Assembly: GCF_900660615.1 (NCBI RefSeq)
Contig: NZ_LR215023.1
Location: 1,178,001 to 1,242,000, forward strand
Length of the DNA: 64,000 bases
Reading direction: 5' to 3'
From: Malacoplasma iowae
GTDB lineage: Bacteria; Bacillota_I; Bacilli_A; Mycoplasmatales; Mycoplasmoidaceae
The notes beneath the pieces are model-generated. The model ran no database searches, was not told where the DNA came from, and worked only from the letters and a program-made list of their open reading frames with translations. This document shows, one piece after another, positions 23,761 to 37,766 of this stretch (position 1 is its first letter; every line of letters starts with the position of its first letter). The position numbers and the translations under genes were made by a program.

Positions 23761-25140
23761 CTATTTAGTTTTTTTAGCAACTTTACTTGTTGCTGGTTTT
23801 TTTGCAGGTGTTTTAGAAACAGTTTTAGTAGCTGGTTTTGCCACTGGTTTTGCAGCTGGTTTGCTAGCAGTTTTGTTTGTTGGTTTAGCTACTGGTTTAG
23901 TAGTTGCTTTTGCAACTGGTTTTGCTGCCGGTTTGCTAGCTGATTTAACTACTGGTTTAGCAACTGGTTTTGCTACCGGTTTGCTAGTAGCTTTAGTTAC
24001 TGGTTTAGTAGTTGTTTTTGCAACTGGTTTTGCAGCTGGTTTGCTAGCAGTTTTAGCCACTGGTTTAGTAGCTGGTTTAGTTGTTGCTTTATTAACTGTT
24101 TTTGCAACCGGTTTTGCAGCTGGTTTACTAGCAGTTTTTGCAACTGGTTTTGTTACTGGTTTGCTAGCAGTTTTAGTTACAGGTTTAGTAGTTGGTTTTA
24201 CTGTTGGTTTACTAACTACTTTTGCAACTGGCTTTGCAGCAGTTTTACTATCAGTTTTAGCTACTGGTTTAGTAGCTGGTTTTTTAGAAACAACTGGTTT
24301 TGTTTTAACAGCTGTTTGAACAATTTTTGGTGGAGTTGTTGGATTTTTACTTTCCTTAACTTTTCTTTCAACTTTATAAATTGGTTTGTAATAAATTGGT
24401 TTTTCAGTAACTGAAGATTTTTTACCTTCTACTTTTTTATTTGATTTAGTTTTATTTGATTTGTTTTGTTGTGATTTATCAATTAAAATCTTAACCCCTA
24501 GACCCATAGTTGAAGAAATTGAAACATTTTGAATGTAAGTTCCTTTAACTGATGCAGGTTTTTTAGATACTAAGAAATCAAGTAAGAATTTAATGTTTTC
24601 AACAACCTTTGCATCATCAGCATCAACTCTACCAACTTTCATATGGATATTACCATATTGATCTGTTCTATATTCATCAATACCAGCTTTGAATTGAGCA
24701 ATTGTTTTAGGTAAATCTGTTGTAACATTACCTATTTTTGGATTAGGCATTAAACCTCTAGTACCTAGTATTTTCCCTAATTTACTTAAAGCAGGCATCA
24801 TTTTAGGAGTTGTAATTATTAAATCAAATCCTAATCAACCTTTTGAAATCTCTTCAATTTTTTCTTTATCACCAGCAAAGTCAACACCTAATTTTGATGC
24901 ATCTTTATCAGTTAAACCTTCATCTAATACTAATATTTTCTTTTTCTTACCAAAAAAGTTAGGTAAAGAAATAGAACCTCTTAATTGTTGATCTGATTTT
25001 GAAGTTTCTAAATTTAATTTAACTGCTATATCGATTGAGGAAACAAATTTTGTTTTTGAATGTGCTTTTACTAATTTAACAGCTTCTTCCATTGAATAGA
25101 AAGAAGTTTTATCAAAATTAATCTTTTGTTTTTTAGACAT
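23761..25140 (-). CDS. rplA: Ribosomal protein L1 with long Lys/Pro/Ala/Thr/Val repeat tail
   Basis: 459 aa. Residues 1-222 are a complete L1: KINFDKTSFYSMEEAVKLVK at the start, PKMMPALSKLGKILGTRGLMPNP (signature) and KGTYIQNVSISSTMGLGVKI at the end. L1 is normally ~230 aa. The other ~237 residues are a basic, low-complexity tail of short units such as KPVAKTASKPAAKPVAK, with Asp and Glu almost absent. L1 sits on the ribosome's mobile stalk, so the tail could contact RNA or other polyanions. The frame is open throughout and overlaps the rplK stop (TAATG). Confidence 0.95.
23770..24290. repeat. Degenerate short tandem repeats encoding the L1 tail
   Basis: About 520 bp of imperfect units of roughly 12-60 bp, built on GCTACTGGTTT/GCAGCTGGTTT-like blocks (as read on the plus strand). 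Such sequence is prone to slippage, so tail length may vary between strains. Confidence 0.8.
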
Positions 25141-25595: not shown

Positions 25596-25827
25596 AAGCA
25601 ACTCTCCTTATAAAATATTTATAATAAAACGTTCTCTACGTGGTTTGGCGGCATACATATAAAATATACCTTCCACATGCTTTGTGCATAAAAATATATG
25701 CTTTTTAATTGTACTATATTTACATCAAAAACAATAGCATAAATTTTATAGTATTCTTGTTGTCCACTAATATGATAAGAATTAAAAAAGTATGTGTATT
25801 ACACACATACTAATCTATTAGCTTAAA

Positions 25828-28800
25828 TTATCTTCAATTTCTTTTTTCAAAATCAAAACTATTTTCTCTAGCATATCCTTGACTTATGATTTGTTTAGCT
25901 AATTCATTTTTCTTTTCAATTTCTTCTCTTTTTTGTTGAAGTTTAGATTTTTCAACTTCAATTTTTTTCAAAAATTCAGAAAGACCACTAATTATAGCTC
26001 TTTGACTTTCGCTATTTGCTTTGATTCTTCCAAGATCAATTCTTGAATGGTCATATTTAAATAAGTTATCAATGTTAGATTTTTTAGTTTCTTTTTTGTT
26101 TTTATTATCAAAATCTTTTTCAAAAGGTTTAGTTTCAAAACTTATTTCATTATCAGATAATTGGAAATCTTCATTTCATTTCAAAGCATCATTTAAATTT
26201 TTATCATTAGAAACAACATCGTCATATATGTTTCTATATAAGTTTTCTTTTTCTAAATCAAACATATTTTCTGGGTTTTCATTATCATCAAACAAAGTCT
26301 CACTTGATTCAAATGCTTCCCCTATTTTTTCAATATTATCTGAAGTAATCTCTTCTGGTTTATCAAAAGCAGATAGATCAACTAATGGTTCTTCTCCAAT
26401 ACTTTCATTAAATTTATCAAATAAATTTTCTGTTTCAAAATTTATTTCATAATCATTTTCTTGTTGTCCAAATTCTAAATCATTAATAGAATCATCAAAT
26501 GAATCCACATTATCTTCGCTTACAACTCTTGGCGGTAAAGAAATTTCTTCATTAAATTCAAATTCATTTTCCATTGGACCTAAATCAATTAATGAATCTT
26601 CTACTGAATTATTCTTGCTTAAATCTTGTTCAAAATTAAATTCATTGTTATTTAAAAAGTCATAATCAAAAGTGTTTCAATTTTCAGATTTTGAATTTGC
26701 ATTATTATATCCACCAAATTTTTCATCTAAAACAGAATCAATATTAGAATTAATTTCATTATTTATTGAACCACTAATTTCATTTTCTTGATTTTGATTA
26801 CTAGAGTAGAATCCAAATTTTTGATCTAATACACTATCAATTACACTATCAGATTCATTTGAAACAAAACCATATGAAGCAACTGGTGTTTCATACCCAC
26901 CAAATTTACTATTTATTACATCATCAAAATTTTCAAAATTAGATTTTGTATCATTTAAATTAGCAACAACCTCTTGATTATATCCACCAAATTTACTATC
27001 AAGAACATCATCAATATTTTTAAATTGATCATCATTTACTTTTGAATCAAAATTTTCTAAATCAAAAGGAACCATATTTTCATAAAAATCTTGAACACTT
27101 ATAAAATGGTTAGTTTCTAAATTTAAATCAGTTGCAACAATTTCATCTAATTTAATTATTTCACCATTATCTATTAATTCATTTTCATCATTATTAGATT
27201 CAATAGTTTCAATATTGATATCTTCATCATTAGTATTTTCTAATTTACTATTAGTTTTGTTATTTTCAATATCAGCTAATAATCCATTAAGTTTATCAAT
27301 TATAAATTTTTGACTTTCTTCAGTATAGATATCTAATGTAACTTCACCATTTTTTAAAGATTCATAAATTGGTTTTAAATCTACTTCAGACTCACAGTTT
27401 AAATTATTAGTATTGTTTTTTTCTCTTAGAGTTTCAATTCTTTTTAAAATTTTATCAACATCGTCTTTAGTTGAATCTGAAACATATTCTAATGAATTGT
27501 TCATATCAAAAAATTCTTTCAAAGCTTTTTCAATATCATCAAATCCTATTTCTTTAAATCCTTCAATATCTTTATCTAATTCTTTTTCCATAATTTTTTC
27601 TTCCTCCAAGTTATAAGATTTGCTTTGTTCATTTATATCAGCTGTTTCAGTATAATACTCTAGTTTATCTTCGCAGCAAGGTTCTTCATATTCATATATA
27701 GAAAAATCATCAACTTGAGATTCAAAATATTCTTTATCTTTGTTTTGATCAAAATTAAAAGCATCAGCAGCTAAATCATCTATTTCGTCATAATTATCAA
27801 AAACATGTGAACAAGAACAAGAACCATAACAATATTGGCAATCTTGTTGATTGCAACCAAATTGAATTTCTTCCTTATTTTTATCTTCTTTATATGATGC
27901 TTGATTTACAAGTTTATCAAATTCATTTTCTTCATTTGCAGAATCAAAATCTTCAAATGTAAATTCTTCTTCATCTAAATCATTATCAACATCAAGCTCA
28001 AAAGAAATTACTTCAGGTTCAAATTTTTCATTTAAACTTATTTCATCAATTTCAATTTTTGACTTACTTTTTTTAGAACTTTCATCATCATTGAAAAACT
28101 TTAAAATATCATTAATTTCAGATTTGTCTTTTTCTTGATTTTCAACGTTTTGAATTTGTTCTTTTAATGCATCCATGAAAACATCATCTAATTCAGATTC
28201 ACTAATATCTTGATTTTCATTAGAGTTTTTATCATATTCTTCTTGTGATGCTATTTCAAATAATTCTTTAATTATTTGTTCTTTTGTTTTTTCATCTTCA
28301 ATAGTTTCTTGATCATTTTCAATTTCTTCATTATTTGAATGGCATCCACAAGAACCACATGGGCAACCTGATTCTTGGTCTTTATTCAAGCCAAAAGAAT
28401 CAAAATCATTTTCTTGTTCTAAATTATTGTTAGATGAGAAATTAAATTGATAATCTATATCATTTTCTTCTTCGTCATCTTCATAATTTTCTAATTCAAC
28501 ATCGTTTTCACAATCATTTTCGATGTCAATCATCTCATCTTCAAGATCAAAGAAATATCCTGTTTGCATTTCAATAACCTTACAAGTTTTTTTGAAATCT
28601 GTTTTTACATCCTCATCAAGATCAATTTTTTTACCTAAAGAATTGAAAAAAGCAAAATTGCCATTATGGAATGATAATATTGGGGTAGAAAATTCTACTG
28701 AAATAGTTGATAACATTGATAGAACATCACTAATACCATTTGCTTCAACTCAAAAACTTCTATCATCGTCAAAATGATAGTTATAAACAGAACTATTTGC

Positions 28801-28917
28801 TGTACCATAGTCTATTAAAGAAAGTTTTTTATATTGAGATATTAAATTACTATTAAAAATTTCATCTAAAACAGAAGGTGTTTTAACTTTTATTCAATAT
28901 ATGCAATTATTTTTCAT
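25828..28917 (-). CDS. Very acidic 1029-aa protein with Cys/His clusters and FGGY repeats
   Basis: Not recognised. The first ~110 residues look globular (KNNCIYWIKVKTPSVLDEIF, SFHNGNFAFFNSLGKK). The rest is dominated by Asp/Glu/Asn. Two Cys clusters stand out in a Cys-poor proteome: CPCGSCGCH near residue 185 and CNQQDCQYCYGSCSCSH near 355-371, plus CC near 414; these could bind metal or form disulfides. Four repeats of VLDSKFGGY/VINSKFGGY/VLDQKFGFY/VLDEKFGGY lie at ~632-746. The C-terminus has a Lys/Glu coiled coil. No signal peptide or membrane segment. Possibly cytoskeletal or a scaffold. Monocistronic, divergent from the TIR-like operon. Confidence 0.85.
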
Positions 28918-29392
28918 AGTTTTCCCCATTTTAATGTATATAGAAAGTTTTATTTATAACATTTAAATTAAACCATAAAATAACTATAATTTGTAATTTA
29001 CATATATTAATATATGATCTAAATCATTCAATTTTAAATTAGTTTTAAAAATGATTATATTAAGTTTCATATTCTTTAAAAATTTATGATTAATTTCGAC
29101 AATTTTGAAAATAAAGCTTTTGTTCTGTTAAATAACAAAATTTAAAATATTTTTTAAAAGATATTATTGCTTTTATTCTATAAAAATAGGTTTATTAATT
29201 AATATGGTTTTAGCATTGAATATCAATTAAGCAATTATCTTTATAACTTGTTAAATAAATCAAATCACAAAACAAAATGATATAGATATTAACTTATTTT
29301 AACTTTTTCACACTTGCCTAATTATTGTTAATTTTGCAAAATTTTATATAAAATAAAAAATAGCAATTTTAAGATTTATTAGAGGTTGTCAA
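28918..29392. other. Divergent promoter region, 475 bp
   Basis: AT-rich spacer between the acidic-protein gene (minus) and the first TIR-like gene (plus). It should hold both promoters; TATATAAAATA at ~29345 fits a -10 for the plus-strand operon. I see no gene or strong palindrome. Confidence 0.4.
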
Positions 29393-29944
29393 ATGAAAAA
29401 AGTATACATAAGTTGCTATGAAAACAATGATCGTTTTTATAAAAATACAATTGTTAATTTTAATAGAAATAGAAATGAAACTTTATTTAAACTTATAGAT
29501 TCAAATGAATCTAGTTTCAATGAAATTCAGAAAGGAAACCCCTATTTTATTGAATTGGTTAAACAACTTATTTTAAAAGATAGTGAAGTAACAATTTTCT
29601 TAATTGGAGAAGAAACAAAAAAAAGAAAAATTGTTGATTGAGAAGCAAGAGCAACTATGCTACAAAATGGATTTTTAAAAAAATCTGGAATAATAATAAT
29701 TTATTTACCAGACATTGTTGAAAAATATGGAACTAAAATTCCAAGAAGTGTTCTTCCAACAATATTACAAAAAAACCTTCAAAAACCAGATGTGTTTGCA
29801 ATAGAAACTACATGAGAAAAAATTAGTAAGGATTTTTTTAACTTGGAAAAATTAATTAGTGTTGCGTATGCATATGCAAAAATATCTGAATATGAATTAG
29901 ATGATGAATATAAAAAAGAAAATAGTCACAATATGAATATATAA
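29393..29944 (+). CDS. TIR-like (ThsB/MTH538-type) protein, copy 1
   Basis: 183 aa with TGA as Trp. The fold pattern is that of the TIR-like family seen in Thoeris ThsB and MTH538: first strand KKVYISCYENND, a helix, then VKQLILKDSEVTIFLIGEET, RKIVDWEARATMLQNGFL (the Trp-Glu motif; this Glu is a candidate catalytic residue) and KSGIIIIYLPDI. It continues PRSVLPTILQKN and a helical end. Family members sense infection and make an NAD-derived messenger in Thoeris. No ThsA is adjacent. It starts an operon with an ABC exporter, 14 bases downstream, and has a paralogue at 33081. Function here is inferred. Confidence 0.75.
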
Positions 29945-29958
29945 AGGAAAGTGCAAGC

Positions 29959-31737
29959 ATGAATAATCAAAAAAATAGGCAAATAAAAAGTTCATTCAAA
30001 TCATTATTTCTTTTTTCTTTTAGATTAATTAGTAAAAAAGCATTTGTGATATGTTCAATCATAGCTTATGCCTTAGTTATATGTCTATATACATCTATAA
30101 TTCCAGTAATGTCAGATAAGGCACCTATAACTTTATTTAGAAGTTCTTATTCTACTTCATTACTAATGTTACTAGTATCAGCTGTTATTTCTGTTATAGC
30201 TGTAGAAATATTTAGAACACCAATAGATGATGGAACCGAATTGCTTATAGTCAGTAAACCAATTAGTAGAAAAGAAATAGTATTTACAAAACTTTTAATA
30301 TTTTTAATATATGTTGTTTCAGTTTCAATAGTTGGAACAATAATTACAGCTTTCACATTTATTAATAGAAGTTCATCAAGACAAGATAGTACAACATTAG
30401 TTTTAGGTGTTTTACTTGGAACAGTTGTTAACGGTTTACTTTTTGGATCAATAACTACTATCTTATCAATTTACTTTAAAAAAATTGTTTCAATGGTAAT
30501 ATCAGTTGGTGTTTCTTTTGCATTATTGATAGTTACTTTTTTGGGATCATTTACAATTAAGTCTCCAGTTCAAATATTACAAGATAGAGGGTATACAATT
30601 ACACCTATCACAGTGCTTGATTCTTCAAAAGATAATAAAACAAACACTGAAAAATTATTAAAAACTAATGCATTATTTTCAACAGGTTTACCACAAGGCG
30701 AAACTCTTCCAAAAGCTTGGAATAGTGCATCAAGTGCTAGCCCTTATAAGACATTTTCATTCTTTGATTTTGGATATCAATTATCAAGTTTATACACACT
30801 GTCATACTCATCTCCAAGTGTAAGTAGTGTAATAGGGGAAATGTCTTTTAGTAGTACTCCAGTTGAACTAATATTTGATGAATCATATAAATTAGCTTCA
30901 AATCCATTATTAACAAAAGTTCATATAACAGCTGAAGATATTAAACCAGGAACTGGTACAACTCCTTCAAAACCATCAACTAAAATTGATTTAATACCAA
31001 TAAATGTTGGATCATATGATTTAATTCCTCAGATTTCTAATTCAACATCAATTCAATTTGATAAAGAATGAAAAAATGTATACAAATATAATGTTCCAGA
31101 TGATTTTATTCAGTCTAAATCAACTGATGAATTAATTAAGATATGAGATGATGCTTGAAATAAATATGGTAAAGCAGATACTTCAAGTGATGCACAATAT
31201 GTTTCAAATTATGAAGTATCAACAGATAAAGAAACTTTAGATTTTTTAAATAATTATTTTAAACAACCAGGTCATTCATTAAATAACTCAGATATTGTTG
31301 CTGTGTTAAGAGAACTTTGTTTAATTCAATTAGGTGGATTATTGAAACTATCACAAGTTAAAAATCTTACAGTAAAAGATACTGAAACTAATAAAGAATA
31401 TACAACTATCCTTCGTTTAGGTGGATCAAAAATAGAAAGAAAAAAACCTGAAGAAGTTAGTAAAATAATTAGACAAAAAAAAGAAACTAATGAACAAATA
31501 AAAATAGAGGATTTTTTATCACTAAGAGGATATACAACTAAATTTAAATGAAATGGTAACACATATAAAATTAGTTTATTAGGTGGCTATGGAAATAGCG
31601 TTTATTATAAAAACTTTGTTAAAACATCTACTAAATCTTTATTAAATAAAAATTACACAATTCCATTATGAATTAGTGTTTCAGTAGTTGTTTTTGCATC
31701 AGCATCTGCGTTATATTTCAAAAGGGACTTTGCTTAA
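29959..31737 (+). CDS. ABC-2 type exporter permease with large extracytoplasmic domain
   Basis: 592 aa. Residues ~20-210 contain about five membrane segments (FVICSIIAYALVICLYT, LLMLLVSAVISVIAVEIF, LLIFLIYVVSVSIVGTIITAF, VLGVLLGTVVNGLLFGSITT, VISVGVSFALLIVTFLG); GTELLIVSKPISRKEIVFTK is the usual ABC-2 cytoplasmic loop. A ~350-residue, Ser/Thr-rich domain of outside type follows, then one C-terminal helix (PLWISVSVVVFASASALYF). Located between a TIR-like gene and its ATPase (20 bases downstream). What it moves is unknown. Confidence 0.83.
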
Positions 31738-31756
31738 ATTTATTTAAGGATTAAAA

Positions 31757-32905
31757 ATGAATACAGATTTACAGAAAAAATTATTAAAAGATTTTGAAAA
31801 AGAACATTTAACAAATAACATCCAAAATAATGTTATTAATCAAAATAAAGATCTAATTGAAGTTAAAAATAAAAATGAAGTTTTTCTAGAAGTAAATAAC
31901 CTTAGAAAACAATACAACAAAAAAGCAAAACCTGCTGTTAATAACATTTCATTTAAAGTATTAGCTGGTGAGTTCCATGCATTTATAGGTGCTAATGGTG
32001 CAGGTAAAACAACAACAATAAAATCTATTGTTGGTGCCTATGCTGAATTTGAAGGTGAAATAAAAATTTCTGGAATAAGCAATAGAGAAAAAAGTTCTAG
32101 ATTAAAACTTGGATATATTCCTGAAAGTGCAAGATTTCCATCAAAAATGTCATCATACTTATATTTAAAAAGTATGGCAGAACTTAATGGTTTAACTCCA
32201 AAAGAAGCTAAAGAATTTACTGAAAGAATACTAAAAGAATTTAATATGTGAAATCTAAGAAATGTTTCACCTAATAAATTTTCAAGTGGTCAGAAAAAGA
32301 AGATTTTATTAGCACAATCTTTATCTAATAATCCAGATTTGTTGATAATGGATGAACCAACAGCAAATCTGGATCCTAAATCAAGAATTGCTTTCTTTGA
32401 AATTCTTAAGGACTTACAAAGTAAGGGAAAATCTATTTTTATTTCTTCTCACATACTTTCTGAATTAGATATTTATGCTAATGCATTAACGATTCTTGAT
32501 GGTGGAAAAATTGTATTCACTGGTAAGAGAAATCAAGATGAAACAAAAAATAAAGAAATATATAAATTAGTTACAGAAAATGAATTATCAAATAAATTAA
32601 ATAGTAGAGCAAAAACATTAAAAGTAGAAATTAAAGATTATCACTCTTCTGAAGCTAATACATATATAGTAAGTTCTGAAACAAAAAAAAGTATGAATGA
32701 ATTCATTAAAGATGTTATGGACTCAAATAGAATTGTTAAATTTGAAAAATATCATTTATCAATAGAAGAATTATATAAAAAATTTGTTATTCTTGGTTCT
32801 GTTCATACAAATAATCAAGCAGACGAGGAAGAAAACCAAGAAATAAAAAACAAACAAGAAGATAAAGAAAAGCCAAAAAAAGAAGAAAAACAAAAAAATA
32901 GTTAA
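31757..32905 (+). CDS. ABC exporter ATP-binding protein
   Basis: 382 aa. A ~45-residue charged N-terminal extension, then the nucleotide-binding domain: Walker A GANGAGKTTT, signature KFSSGQKKKILLAQSL, Walker B LLIMDEPTANLD and switch His in FISSHILSELD. The signature is SSGQ rather than LSGGQ. The last ~130 residues are a regulatory-type domain and end in a Lys/Glu tail (KNKQEDKEKPKKEEKQK). Partner of the upstream permease; closes the operon before a strong terminator. Confidence 0.88.
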
Positions 32906-32932
32906 AACCATAAAAAAAATTAATTATTCTTA

Positions 32933-32966
32933 AACACTAAGATTCTCTAATTCTTAGTGTTTTTTC
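32933..32966 (+). terminator. Terminator of TIR-like/ABC operon
   Basis: AACACTAAGA/TCTTAGTGTT stem, 9-base loop, then a T-run, ~28 bases after the ATPase stop. It separates the second TIR-like gene as its own unit. Confidence 0.9.
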
Positions 32967-33080
32967 TTTTTTTTAAAAAACTATTTATTTAAACATTAAA
33001 AAATAAAATAATCATATTTAATTGCATTATAAATTTATATTTAATACCATTAATTGTGTATTAAATTAAATGGTTAATTT

Positions 33081-33635
33081 ATGAAAAAAGTATACATTAG
33101 TTGTTATTCAAATGAACATCAAAAATATAAAAACACATTATTAGACTATGGAAAAAATAAAAAATTGTTTTTAACTAATTTTTCTAATGAAAAAGATTTT
33201 GATTTTTTAAACACCAATAATACTGATGATGAAATAATCAAAAGTGTTAAATTAAAAATTTTAAAAGATAGCGATGTATCTATATTTTTAATTGGTAAAG
33301 AGACTTCATCAAGAAAAATAATTGATTGGGAATTACGTGCTTCAATGATTAACTATGGTGTATTAAAGAATTGTGGAATTATAGTGGTTTATTTGCCTGA
33401 GATAACAGATGAATTCAAAGAAAAAATTCCTAGATCAGTATTACCTGAAATCCTTTATAAAAATATTTCAAATCCAGATTGTCACATTGTAGAAACTACA
33501 TGAAATAGAATAAACAAAGAAGTTGGTCATTTAGAAAAACTACTTAACTTAGCATTATGCTATAAAGATCTATCAAAATACAAAATTGATAAAAATATTA
33601 AAATAAAAAATTCATCAAAATATAATATGTTCTAA
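33081..33635 (+). CDS. TIR-like (ThsB/MTH538-type) protein, copy 2
   Basis: 184 aa, clearly paralogous to the protein at 29393 along its whole length (shared KKVYISCY, ILKDSxVxIFLIGxET, RKIxDWExRAxM, GIIxxYLPxI, IPRSVLPxIL, ETTW). The Trp-Glu motif is kept; here the Trp of DWEL is TGG. Divergence is highest between the first strand and the ILKDS helix, where a ligand- or partner-specific surface would lie. It stands alone behind a terminator, with a TATAAA box ~45 bases upstream. Role inferred as for copy 1. Confidence 0.75.
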
Positions 33636-33727
33636 TAATTAAAAAAATATTAATTTTCCTTTTTGTTTTTGTTTTCAATGCAACAAAAACAATAAATAGA
33701 AAAATTAATATAATAAAAGTTTTTTGC

Positions 33728-34015
33728 TTATTTATTTTTAATTTTTTCTTCTAGAGGTGTTATACCTCTTTTTTGATAATAAAATTGCGAACTAATAAAA
33801 ACTGGGTCTGAACTTTCTTTTACAAAATTCATTATTGAACTTAATAAATTCATCAATTCATCTATATTTCCATCTATTGTTGTTTCACTTGGTCCAACCA
33901 AATAATTAAGATTAGAATTTTTAATAATATCTATAACGTCATCAACCATTTTAAAAACAATATCTTTATCATGATTAATTCTTAAAATTTTTAATGAAAG
34001 TGTAGCGTTTTTCAT
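33728..34015 (-). CDS. MTH1187/YkoF-type thiamine-binding protein
   Basis: 95 aa, the size of the single-domain thiamine-binding family (PF01910-like). It starts ATLSLKILRI (first strand), then VDDVIDIIKNSNLNYLVGPSETTIDGNIDELMNLLSSI, where the NYxVGPxxTxIxGxxDE pattern is the family mark. Small cytoplasmic ferredoxin-like fold that binds thiamine or a precursor. Last gene of the TPP-riboswitch operon; its start overlaps the permease end by 25 bases and has AAAGGAG upstream. Confidence 0.75.
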   Translation of the reverse strand: MKNATLSLKILRINHDKDIVFKMVDDVIDIIKNSNLNYLVGPSETTIDGNIDELMNLLSSIMNFVKESSDPVFISSQFYYQKRGITPLEEKIKNK

Positions 34016-35724
34016 TTTATACTCCTTTTAATTTTGCTTTTTAAATTTAAAAATTTTTGCTTTCCAATTCTAAAATCATTAATATAGAAAATTCTAAATA
34101 TAGATAAAACAATATTTAATAACATAATTAATATGAATATTAATCATAAAAAAGCTCCCATTTTGTCATATAAAGATCTTTTAAAAAAATAATCTAATTG
34201 AGAACTAATTTCACTTGCGCCACTATATGAACCATAAATAATTAAATTTCTAAATGTGTTTTCAAATTCAAATGTTCCAACCGTCAAAATATCATTTTTT
34301 AATTTGTATAAAATATAATTTTTAAAAATCATCAATCTTGAATGTCCTGTTAGAAACATTATTTGAATATTATATTCATTTAATTTTTCACTTTTTTCAT
34401 TAATTACTTTAAATAATGATGTTGCTAGTGAGACAGATAATGCTATTGTTAATGCACTAGATGTGTCAAAATATATAGAATCAACAATAAACAAAATCGC
34501 TACTGCAGGAACTGCTCTAACAATTGAATTTAATATATGTATAACAAAATATGTTTTTCTAAATAAAAATTTATTTCCTAAAAATAATGTTATAAGCAAA
34601 AACAATAATGAAATAGTAACTGCAACAATTGCTTGACTAAAAAGATTTAAAATTTGATTTCATATTGGGATAGTTAATGAACTTGAATTCAATATATTTC
34701 AATCTGGAGAAAAAATTGCATTTAAAAAAATTCAACCACTATCTGTTTTTAAACTATTAAAATCTGTTGTTGTAAAACAATAAAAAATAAATGATATTAA
34801 AACAACAAATATGACAACAGAAAATATTTTTTTAAATTTTCTAAATTTTAAATATTGGTTTTGGTTTCAATTATTTTTTAAAAAGGGTATTTTTTCTTCA
34901 ATTAGTATTTTTTTAAAAACATAGATAAAAATTTCTAAAAAAATTAAAAACAATGAAATCATAAGTACTGGTATTCCCATAGTACTAAAGTCTTCAGTCC
35001 CTTGTTGGATAAGTTGTCCTATTCCTATAAGTCCCAAAGAACCTAATATTGTGCTTCATCTTACATTAGATTCAAAAGAAAATAGAAATAGACTAATTAT
35101 TCTAGTATTAACTTGGTAAAACACAGTTGTTCAGAAAGAAATAAATTTGTTGTTTCCTTCAACAATTTTTTGAAAATATAGAGAATAATCTATATTTCTA
35201 TAGATTTCTATTAAATATTTATGTGATCACAATCATGTAAATCACAATAAAACAATAAATAATCCTAGTTCTTTAGAAAAAGATAACTGAATATAATATA
35301 TGAAAAATAATATTGGTACAAACCTTAAAACATTCACAATTAAGTTAATAAAATAACTTGTATATTTGTTTGTAAAATTTTTGAAACTTAAATAACTTGA
35401 AATTAAAGCTAATGCAAATCCAGTTATAGTTCCTATTAAAGTTTGTTTTATTGTTAACAATAAATAGTTAAATGAAACATTTCATAGTGATTGATTTGGA
35501 AAATATTTAGAATTATCAGAAAAATTAAATAGTTGTTTAATATTTTCAAAAAAGACATTTGTTCCATTAGGGACTATTTTGAAACCAACATTTACAAAAC
35601 TTAAAATGATTAAAATTAAAATTAATGCACTAATTGTTCACTTTATTCACGGATTTAGTTTTCTATAATTTTTATTTGGTGATATTCAACTATAAAAAAC
35701 ATTAGATTTAATTTTTTTATCCAT
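33991..35724 (-). CDS. Thiamine(-phosphate) ABC permease, two permease domains fused
   Basis: 577 aa with many TGA Trp codons. Two PhnE-like binding-protein-dependent permease domains in one chain: domain 1 ~residues 30-280 with the coupling-loop stretch NVRWSTILGSLGLIGIGQLI, domain 2 ~300-560 with LRFV-like NSIVRAVPAVAILFIVDSIY and FENTFRNLIIYGSYSGASE. Usually such transporters have a ~270-residue permease that dimerises. It sits between the PhnC-like ATPase (8-base overlap) and a thiamine-binding protein, all behind a TPP riboswitch, so thiamine or its phosphate is the likely substrate. Confidence 0.8.
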
Positions 35725-36451
35725 AATAATTAACAAGCTCTTTTCTTGAAATTTTATTAATTGAACCATTGAATACAAGTTTTTTATTTTTAAAAATAAT
35801 AGCATCACCAATATTATTTACTATTTGATCAACATCGTGAATTGTTAATAATATTGTGGAATTATTTTCATCTTTAATCATCTTCAATAAACTCAATACA
35901 TCTGTAGAACTTTTAGTATCTAAGTTAGATAAAGGTTCATCAGCAACTATAATTTTGTATTTGTTTAAAAGTAATTTAGCTATCTCGACCCTCCTTTGTT
36001 GGCCACCACTTAGATATTTAACTTTTTGATAACATTTATCAGCTATATTTAATTTATCTAAAATTGCAACTAAATTTTCTTTATCTTTTTTGTTTAAAAA
36101 ATTAAAAAATCTTAGAAAAGGATTTTTTTGGTTTTTATAATTGATTCTTAGGTTATCATAAACAGTTAAATCATCAATCAATGTATTTTTTTGACTAATT
36201 CATCCAACTGATTTTCTAAAATCTACAAGTTGTTTTCTCTTCAACAAAGATATTTTTTTATTATCAACAATAATTTCACCATCAACTATTTCACAGTTTT
36301 TTACAATAGAATTAAGAAATGTTGTTTTTCCAACACCTGAATTACCAATAATTGCAACAAAGGAATTGTTTGGAATTAATAAATTAATGTTTTCTAAAAC
36401 TGTATTATCTTGGTTAAAATTTTTTATTGTTACATTTTTAAATTCAATCAT
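35717..36451 (-). CDS. Thiamine ABC transporter ATPase (PhnC-like)
   Basis: 244 aa. Walker A GNSGVGKTT, Q-loop WISQKNTLIDDLTVYDNLR, signature YLSGGQQRRVEIAKLL, Walker B IIVADEPLSNLD and switch TIHDVDQIV. By similarity alone it would be called a phosphonate importer ATPase; the riboswitch and the neighbouring thiamine-binding protein argue for thiamine. It begins 8 bases after the binding-protein stop. Confidence 0.87.
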
Positions 36452-36459
36452 TTTTATCC

Positions 36460-37611
36460 TTAACCATTAAATGTCTTGTTATATTTATCTAAAACTTCTG
36501 TTTGGTAATTTTTAATTTCTCTATATCCGTTATAACCAATGCTTGCTCCATATGTATTTAAATTATTAATTTCTAAATATTTAAAAGCATATATGAAATT
36601 ATCTAATAAAGCTCCAGTTATTCTTTTACTAAAGAAACCAATATCATAATATAAAGGGTCTGTCACTGTAAGTATTTTTATTTTTTTTCCATTAGGGGTT
36701 TTATATGATGTTTTGTTAGATGGAGTTCATGCAAAAGATGCTTCATCTGTAAAACTTATAACATTTGAACTAATACCCATTTTAGTATTTCCAAAATCGT
36801 CTTTCAAATATTTATCTGGGTATTTTTCAATATCAGAATTAAGTGTTCAATTTTTATCTTTTTTAAAATGTTTTTTTAACAAAAGTTCTTGTAGTTTATA
36901 ATTGCCATCAGAACTTTGATCACCATATATTATTCCTAAATTTCTAAAACTTTCCCAATCTCTTGTATCTCAAGCATTTTCTGCTTTTTTTATATCCTCA
37001 TCAGTCCCATTTAAGACAATCATTCCTCTATAATGATCTGTAAGTATGTAATTACTTGTTTTTGAATCTTTTGCATAAAAATCATCATGTCTTATATTGT
37101 TTCACCCAAATGATAATCCTCAATTTTCAAATATAGGATTTTTATCAAAAGAAACTTTTTGCATTTCTTCAGCAATTATTCTTAAGGGATCATTTGTTCC
37201 ACCATCAGAATAAAATTTATCATCTTCTTTATCAAAAACAAAAGCATCAGTTAATGTTTGAATTTTTGGTTGAGAATAGTTTACTAATTGATTATCAATA
37301 GATTTTCCCATCGGTATAAAAGCAAAATCTGCTGAACCATTTTTTAATTTAGAAATTTTAACTTGAGGGTCTGTTACCAAATGATAATTAATTTTAATTT
37401 TTGGAAGATTAGTCTTTGCATTTTGTTGATTAACTATTTGCTCTATTCTTTTTGCAAATTGTTTACCATTGTCTATCCCCTCACCATTATCATGAGATGA
37501 AGACAAGTAAAATGTATAAGTATTATTATCATTACTACAACCACTTAAAACAAAAGGAATAAGCATAGTAGAAACAGAGAATAACAATGTTAATTTTTTC
37601 TTATTTTTCAT
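36460..37611 (-). CDS. Thiamine/TPP-binding lipoprotein (p37/Cypl-like)
   Basis: 383 aa. Lipoprotein signal with Cys25 in FVLSGCSND; anchored outside the membrane. The mature part resembles the mycoplasmal p37/Cypl and PhnD-like periplasmic-binding fold: TFYLSSSHDNGEGIDNGKQF, LKNGSADFAFIPMGKS and NPIFENWGLSFGWNNIRHDD. Cypl of M. hyorhinis is known to bind thiamine pyrophosphate. First gene behind the TPP riboswitch. I take ATG 37611; a GTG four codons earlier (37623) is possible, and the RBS is weak in either case. Confidence 0.83.
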
Positions 37612-37626
37612 TTCAAAACCCACAAT

Positions 37627-37652
37627 AAAAAAACCTTCTTGTGTTAAGAAGG
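37627..37652 (-). terminator. Riboswitch expression-platform terminator
   Basis: CCTTCTT/AAGAAGG stem with a 5-base loop followed by seven T on the minus strand, between the TPP aptamer and the lipoprotein start. It fits transcription termination when TPP is bound. Confidence 0.85.
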
Positions 37653-37686
37653 CAAATGAAAATACAAATTAAGTAAAAATATGTAT

Positions 37687-37766
37687 GTCCATGCCTCCGC
37701 TAGTACTAACTAGATCAGGTCATAAGCGTATTTCTCAGCCAATAATTGGCACCGCCTGATAACACA
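37687..37766 (-). promoter_or_regulatory. TPP (thiamine pyrophosphate) riboswitch aptamer
   Basis: On the minus strand the conserved THI-box parts appear in order: GGTGCC, then GGCTGAGAAATACGC, then GACCTGATCTAGTT, a short hairpin, and AGTACTAGCGGAGGCATGG. These match the pyrimidine-sensor (CUGAGA) and pyrophosphate-sensor (ACCUGAUCU..GGxUxxUxCxAGCGxAGG) helices. An intrinsic terminator and the thiamine uptake genes follow. Confidence 0.93.

What the first reader, a model, noticed from the sequence alone, without database searches (positions are those of the whole stretch)
29393..33635. Two paralogous TIR-like (ThsB-type) proteins bracketing an ABC-2 exporter
Two full-length TIR-like proteins with the same core (KKVYISCY, FLIGxET, DWE motif) lie on either side of a permease/ATPase pair; the first shares its operon. 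ThsB-family proteins make an NAD-derived signal in Thoeris defence, normally read by ThsA. Here no ThsA is adjacent and a membrane exporter with a ~350-residue outside domain takes its place. A signal-gated transporter, a membrane effector or a non-defence use are all open. Two diverged copies suggest selection on recognition. I know of no described mollicute system of this form, but I cannot search.
Basis: partly seen in the sequence, partly recalled or inferred. Interest (0 to 1): 0.82.

Follow-up and report, generated by a model that had tools for sequence, protein, structure and literature searches.

The report
Genus-wide immune-type TIR protein in mycoplasmas
A mycoplasma lineage carries, in nearly every species, a slowly changing relative of a bacterial antiviral signalling enzyme without its usual killer partner; it sits beside a large acidic protein rather than working with the transporter that happens to lie between its two copies here, so it may be an immune enzyme turned to an everyday task.

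Summary
In detail: two ~184-aa TIR-like proteins (49% identical) flank an ABC-2 permease/ATPase pair, and both pass the curated Pfam cut-off for ThsB_TIR. The putative catalytic Glu (E84) and the facing aromatic (Y5) are invariant in all 11 genus copies. No ThsA-type SIR2 or SLOG domain was found in the 10 genus genomes. The TIR-ABC operon exists in just two sister species. Seven other congeners keep one TIR gene; in one it lies beside an oppositely oriented ABC cluster, in the rest no relative of this transporter was found beside it. The ABC ATPase family occurs in 65 of 95 family genomes, mostly without this TIR. What travels with the TIR gene is a head-to-head gene for a very acidic, cysteine-cluster, coiled-coil-type protein, adjacent in six species. 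TIR1 is under strong constraint (dN/dS 0.06, like metK), and the family is near-universal in the genus but patchy outside. Best reading: a ThsB-type TIR enzyme vertically kept in the genus, probably for a non-Thoeris, possibly housekeeping role; the exporter is a neighbour, not a proven effector. Enzyme activity and the link to the acidic protein are inferred, not shown.

The parts
29393..29944 (+). TIR1: ThsB-type TIR-like protein, 183 aa; putative catalytic E84 (DWE) and Y5
   Evidence: PF08937 4e-10; TIR-like model, best PDB matches EcThsB, BdThsB1, EcThsB2; residues invariant in 11 of 11 genus copies
33081..33635 (+). TIR2: paralogue of TIR1 (49% identical), 184 aa, probably with its own promoter
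   Evidence: PF08937 3.1e-10; present only here and in sister species G030
25828..28929 (-). Divergent conserved neighbour: acidic (25.5% D+E) protein with an alpha/beta N-terminal domain, Cys clusters and a C-terminal coiled-coil-like segment; start may be the ATG at 28917
   Evidence: Head-to-head with TIR in G000, G022, G023, G026, G027, G029; N-domain model pLDDT 87.6
28930..29392 (.). Intergenic region shared by the divergent acidic gene and TIR1
   Evidence: Sequence; lengths 182-475 bp across species
29959..31737 (+). ABC-2-type permease, 592 aa, with a ~360-residue stretch between TM segments
   Evidence: PF12679/PF12730 matches just under cut-off; hydropathy; paralogue 59% identical elsewhere in the genome
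31757..32905 (+). ABC ATPase, 382 aa
   Evidence: PF00005 2.9e-26; relatives in 65 of 95 family genomes
32932..32962 (+). Terminator-like hairpin between the ATPase and TIR2
   Evidence: fold -11.9 kcal/mol, z -6.24, U-rich tail

Best explanation
TIR1 is a ThsB-type TIR enzyme that has become a fixed, slowly evolving gene of its mycoplasma genus (probably Malacoplasma). SHOWN: family membership, conserved putative catalytic pair (Y5, E84), near-universal presence in the genus, strong purifying selection, no detected SIR2/SLOG ThsA, conserved head-to-head adjacency with an acidic coiled-coil-type protein. INFERRED: it cleaves or cyclises NAD+ (or a related nucleotide) when triggered; its trigger or receptor is not ThsA and is more likely the divergently encoded acidic protein (as scaffold, sensor or target) than the exporter; its role is a core physiological or stress function rather than arms-race phage defence. 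In the lineage of this genome and G030 a second copy and a common mollicute ABC-2 exporter lie next to it, and TIR1 appears to share an operon with the exporter.
For: PF08937 above cut-off and TIR/ThsB best fold matches. E84 aligns with the 'RYE' Glu of BcThsB, which corresponds to published catalytic E85 if the crystal chains carry 1-2 extra N-terminal residues (PMC10022894). Y5 lies at the place of the F6 needed in S. aureus ThsB2 (PMC12578639). TIR in 9 of 10 genus genomes but 1 weak hit in the other 85 family genomes and about 4% of a class sample. dN/dS 0.059 for TIR1 against metK 0.064; in G027/G028 0.009 against the pheT-like gene 0.115. In the fetched stretches of G023 and G026 the acidic gene and TIR are the only genes that match this window. 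The acidic gene was never found in a genome without TIR. SIR2_2 absent in 10 of 10 while the positive control G316 rings.
Against: Low dN/dS and vertical inheritance do not exclude defence. Residues nearly invariant in outside relatives are changed here: R53, D58, R124 and the SVxxGDI segment, so NAD chemistry might be altered or lost. G024 has TIR without a detectable acidic gene; in G028 the contig ends there and the acidic gene was not found. dS is near saturation for several pairs. Only one of five AlphaFold models was confident (81 against 37-48) and no PDB match reached E<=0.001.
Confidence: 0.5

Rival explanations
1. Thoeris-like defence in which the TIR-made signal gates the ABC-2 exporter or uses it as a membrane effector.
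For: TIR1, permease and ATPase form a tight operon bracketed by TIR2 in two sister species at considerable synonymous distance; G022 also has an ABC cluster beside its TIR, in opposite orientation.
Against: No such adjacency in G023, G024, G026, G027, G028; the ABC family is widespread without TIR; a paralogous permease of this genome has no TIR beside it; gene order around the operon is conserved with G030 too, so operon retention is not special.
Confidence: 0.12
2. A core-conserved phage-defence TIR: still a ThsB signalling enzyme, but with an unrecognised effector encoded elsewhere or with TIR itself as NAD+-depleting effector.
For: An outside relative, G316, lies in a true ThsA-ThsB operon; other relatives lie on plasmids, including small ones with a toxin-antitoxin pair; stand-alone TIR genes without annotated ThsA exist there.
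Against: Near-universal, apparently vertically kept and housekeeping-like in constraint within the genus; no match in phage records.
Confidence: 0.25
3. Catalytically dead TIR scaffold: the domain serves assembly (for example of the acidic coiled-coil-type protein), not NAD+ chemistry.
For: Change of R53, D58, R124 and the SVxxGDI segment; conserved linkage to a possibly structural protein.
Against: Y5, E84, S7, R78, D82 and W83 are invariant in all 11 copies, which is unexpected for a dead enzyme.
Confidence: 0.13

Closest known systems
ThsB of type I Thoeris (BcThsB, PF08937; S. aureus ThsB2)
   Same: TIR-like fold family, putative catalytic Glu and facing aromatic, single-domain ~185-aa size
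   Different: No SIR2-SLOG ThsA found in any congener; genus-core distribution; several residues invariant in outside relatives changed; linked to an acidic coiled-coil-type protein
Stand-alone 'TIR domain-containing protein' genes on enterobacterial plasmids
   Same: Near full-length similarity (96% cover, 29.7% identity, E 6e-14), no ThsA annotated on the two small plasmids inspected
   Different: Plasmid-borne, not core chromosomal; no acidic partner annotated
PDC-M50 (PADLOC candidate defence: TIR-like PDC-M50B + PDC-M50A)
   Same: TIR-like proteins hit the PDC-M50B model
   Different: No PDC-M50A-like small membrane protein beside TIR1/TIR2; a weak candidate pair is elsewhere in the same genome
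ABC-2 exporters of Mollicutes
   Same: P0002/P0003 belong to a group found across the family
   Different: Only here and in G030 in an operon with a TIR gene

Membership tests
PF08937 ThsB_TIR protein family | Profile score above the curated cut-off | tested here: met
   40.4 and 40.8 bits against 21.2
PF08937 ThsB_TIR protein family | TIR-like alpha/beta fold | tested here: met
   Best of five models pLDDT 81; Foldseek top hits EcThsB, BdThsB1, EcThsB2 (prob 0.99, though E>0.001)
NAD+-processing TIR enzymes | Catalytic Glu with facing aromatic residue | tested here: met
   E84 and Y5 invariant in 11 of 11; E84 aligned with the BcThsB Glu. By alignment only.
NAD+-processing TIR enzymes | NAD+ hydrolysis or cyclisation | not testable with these tools
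   Needs biochemistry
Thoeris type I | ThsA (SIR2-SLOG) encoded with ThsB | tested here: not met
   SIR2_2 and STALD found in none of 10 genus genomes; control G316 rings for both
Thoeris with macro-domain ThsA | ThsA_Macro (PF20016) with ThsB | tested here: inconclusive
   0 of 10 but no control rang
Thoeris | Phage protection by abortive infection | not testable with these tools
   Needs a phage challenge
TIR-ABC signal-gated transporter (proposed) | Conserved TIR-ABC gene pairing in relatives | tested here: not met
   Operon in 2 of 9 TIR-bearing congeners; ABC mostly without TIR

The most novel reading that the evidence does not exclude
An immune-type TIR signalling enzyme has been domesticated as a core gene of a wall-less, genome-reduced bacterial genus, using an NAD+-derived signal to control a genus-specific acidic coiled-coil (possibly cytoskeletal) protein instead of triggering cell suicide.
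Probability: 0.2. Interest if true: 0.85.

Novelty: new variant of a known kind. Interest (0 to 1): 0.5.

Why it matters
TIR enzymes in bacteria are known mainly from defence (own knowledge). A ThsB-type TIR that is near-universal and strongly constrained in a whole genus with small genomes, and lacks the known effector, would be a clear case for asking whether such signals have non-immune uses in bacteria. The genus appears to include a human-associated and a poultry species, so the protein is a definable, testable unknown.

Tried and rejected
Single-sequence PDB searches gave only chance hits; the profile gave ThsB at E=0.24. NCBIfam had no good model for the TIRs. Rfam found no RNA element in 25700-37700. 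The promoter scan found fewer sites than shuffles, so no promoter is claimed. The acidic protein has no Pfam match and its N-domain fold search gave only weak ferredoxin-like, dimeric alpha-beta-barrel or PII-like matches, so no function is inferred. Literature searches for mollicute Thoeris or TIR NADases gave no relevant paper, and none was seen to name the acidic protein. Rejected: close phage relatives (no phage record matches).

Full report
WHAT IS THERE. Under the mycoplasma code the window holds four consecutive + strand genes: TIR1 (29393-29944), permease (29959-31737), ATPase (31757-32905), TIR2 (33081-33635). Both TIR-like proteins exceed the Pfam cut-off for ThsB_TIR and match PADLOC ThsB and PDC-M50B models. 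They are 49% identical. A hairpin followed by U residues at 32932-32962 (z=-6.2) separates TIR2 from the ATPase. The genome is 1.28 Mb. One congener, G023, has a contig of 1,358,633 bases, which from my own knowledge is the published size of Mycoplasma (Malacoplasma) penetrans HF-2; with the genome size and code this suggests Malacoplasma, perhaps M. iowae, but no tool named the genome.

FOLD AND ACTIVE SITE. AlphaFold with 11 genus sequences gave one confident model (pLDDT 81; the other four 37-48). Its best PDB matches include EcThsB, BdThsB1, EcThsB2 and a B. cereus TIR (prob 0.99, E 0.007-0.03). A profile of the genus family aligns DWE with the 'RYE' Glu of BcThsB, residue 87 of chain 6lhy_A and 86 of 9b7d_A. 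The catalytic Glu of BcThsB is E85 (PMC10022894), which fits if the constructs carry 1-2 extra residues (inference). In S. aureus ThsB2 E81 and F6 are both required (PMC12578639); here the Glu is kept and the aligned Phe position of relatives is Tyr, both in all 11 copies. But positions nearly invariant in nine outside relatives are changed: R53 and R124 to aliphatic residues, D58, and the SVxxGDI segment. So catalysis is plausible, with altered regulation or substrate handling (inference).

DISTRIBUTION. TIR1-like genes are in 9 of 10 genus genomes (the exception, G025, is in about 260 contigs) and, in the other 85 family genomes, only as one weak hit in G031. In a class sample 11 of 295 other genomes have a relative. 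The genus family is one clade (100/100) on a long stem. TIR2 exists only here and in G030; its place in the midpoint-rooted tree, outside the other genus copies, is only moderately supported. Outside, one relative (G316) sits in a genuine ThsA-ThsB operon with a STALD+SIR2 protein, others beside unrelated or apparently membrane proteins, and others stand on enterobacterial plasmids.

THE TRANSPORTER. The order TIR-permease-ATPase-TIR is shared only with G030. In G022 the TIR is next to a convergent ATPase (61% identical) and three permeases. In G023 the best ABC match is ~850 kb away in record coordinates; in G024 it is ~45 kb away. The ATPase family is found in 65 of 95 genomes. The permease paralogue in this genome (59% identical) stands without TIR. 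So the ABC pair is a common exporter type with its own history; its operon with TIR1 is real but local.

THE CONSERVED NEIGHBOUR. Head-to-head with TIR lies a gene for a 509-1102-aa acidic protein (22-28% D+E, 9-36 Cys) with a conserved ~100-aa N-domain and a conserved C-terminal coiled-coil-like end. It is adjacent in this genome, G022, G023, G026, G027 and G029. In G030 it lies on another contig, close to what reads like transposase remnants (the reading is mine). In G028 the contig ends 73 bp beyond the TIR start. In G024 and G025 it was not found. In the fetched stretches of G023 and G026 no other gene matches this window, so the adjacency outlived the surroundings. The N-domain is confidently modelled but its fold matches only weakly.

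SELECTION. Between this genome and G030 dN/dS is 0.059 for TIR1, 0.088 for TIR2, 0.193 for the permease, 0.088 for the ATPase and 0.064 for metK; between G027 and G028 it is 0.009 for TIR against 0.115 for the pheT-like gene. These are pairwise Nei-Gojobori values with partly saturated dS. They show constraint, not an arms race.

THSA. STALD and SIR2_2 were not found in the ten genus genomes, while G316 rings for both. The macro-domain ThsA search had no positive control.

CONCLUSION. The more interesting point is the genus-core, strongly constrained, ThsA-less ThsB-type TIR with a conserved acidic neighbour. Its chemistry and role are open.

Noticed in passing
G000:C1 ~680062-681233 (L068 8063-9234, outside the window): A separate TIR-like gene (P0005, ThsB model 2e-18) with a small membrane protein gene just upstream (P0006, weak PDC-M50A match), near transposase genes and a DNA methyltransferase-like gene: a better candidate for a real TIR + membrane-protein defence pair in this genome.
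   Followed up: partly
23761-25140 (-): Apparent ribosomal protein L1 with a long Lys/Ala/Pro/Thr-rich repeat tail; a relative of similar length is in G022. Identity read by eye.
   Followed up: no
L045 11094-19639 (G022): Beside the TIR of G022 one ATPase and three permease paralogues of the ABC-2 group lie in a row, with a relative of window gene 33728-34015 behind them, as if the segment were inverted relative to this window.
   Followed up: partly
L096 1-993 (G030 contig C8): What reads like transposase remnants lies upstream of the acidic gene, where the TIR gene would be expected; possible rearrangement point.
   Followed up: no
L117 2951-3565 and similar plasmids: Near full-length relatives of TIR1 are stand-alone genes on small enterobacterial plasmids that also carry a toxin-antitoxin pair, with no ThsA annotated.
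   Followed up: partly
33991-37623 (-): Downstream lies an apparent binding-protein-dependent ABC importer operon (permease, ATPase, lipoprotein), syntenic in G030. Substrate not determined.
   Followed up: no
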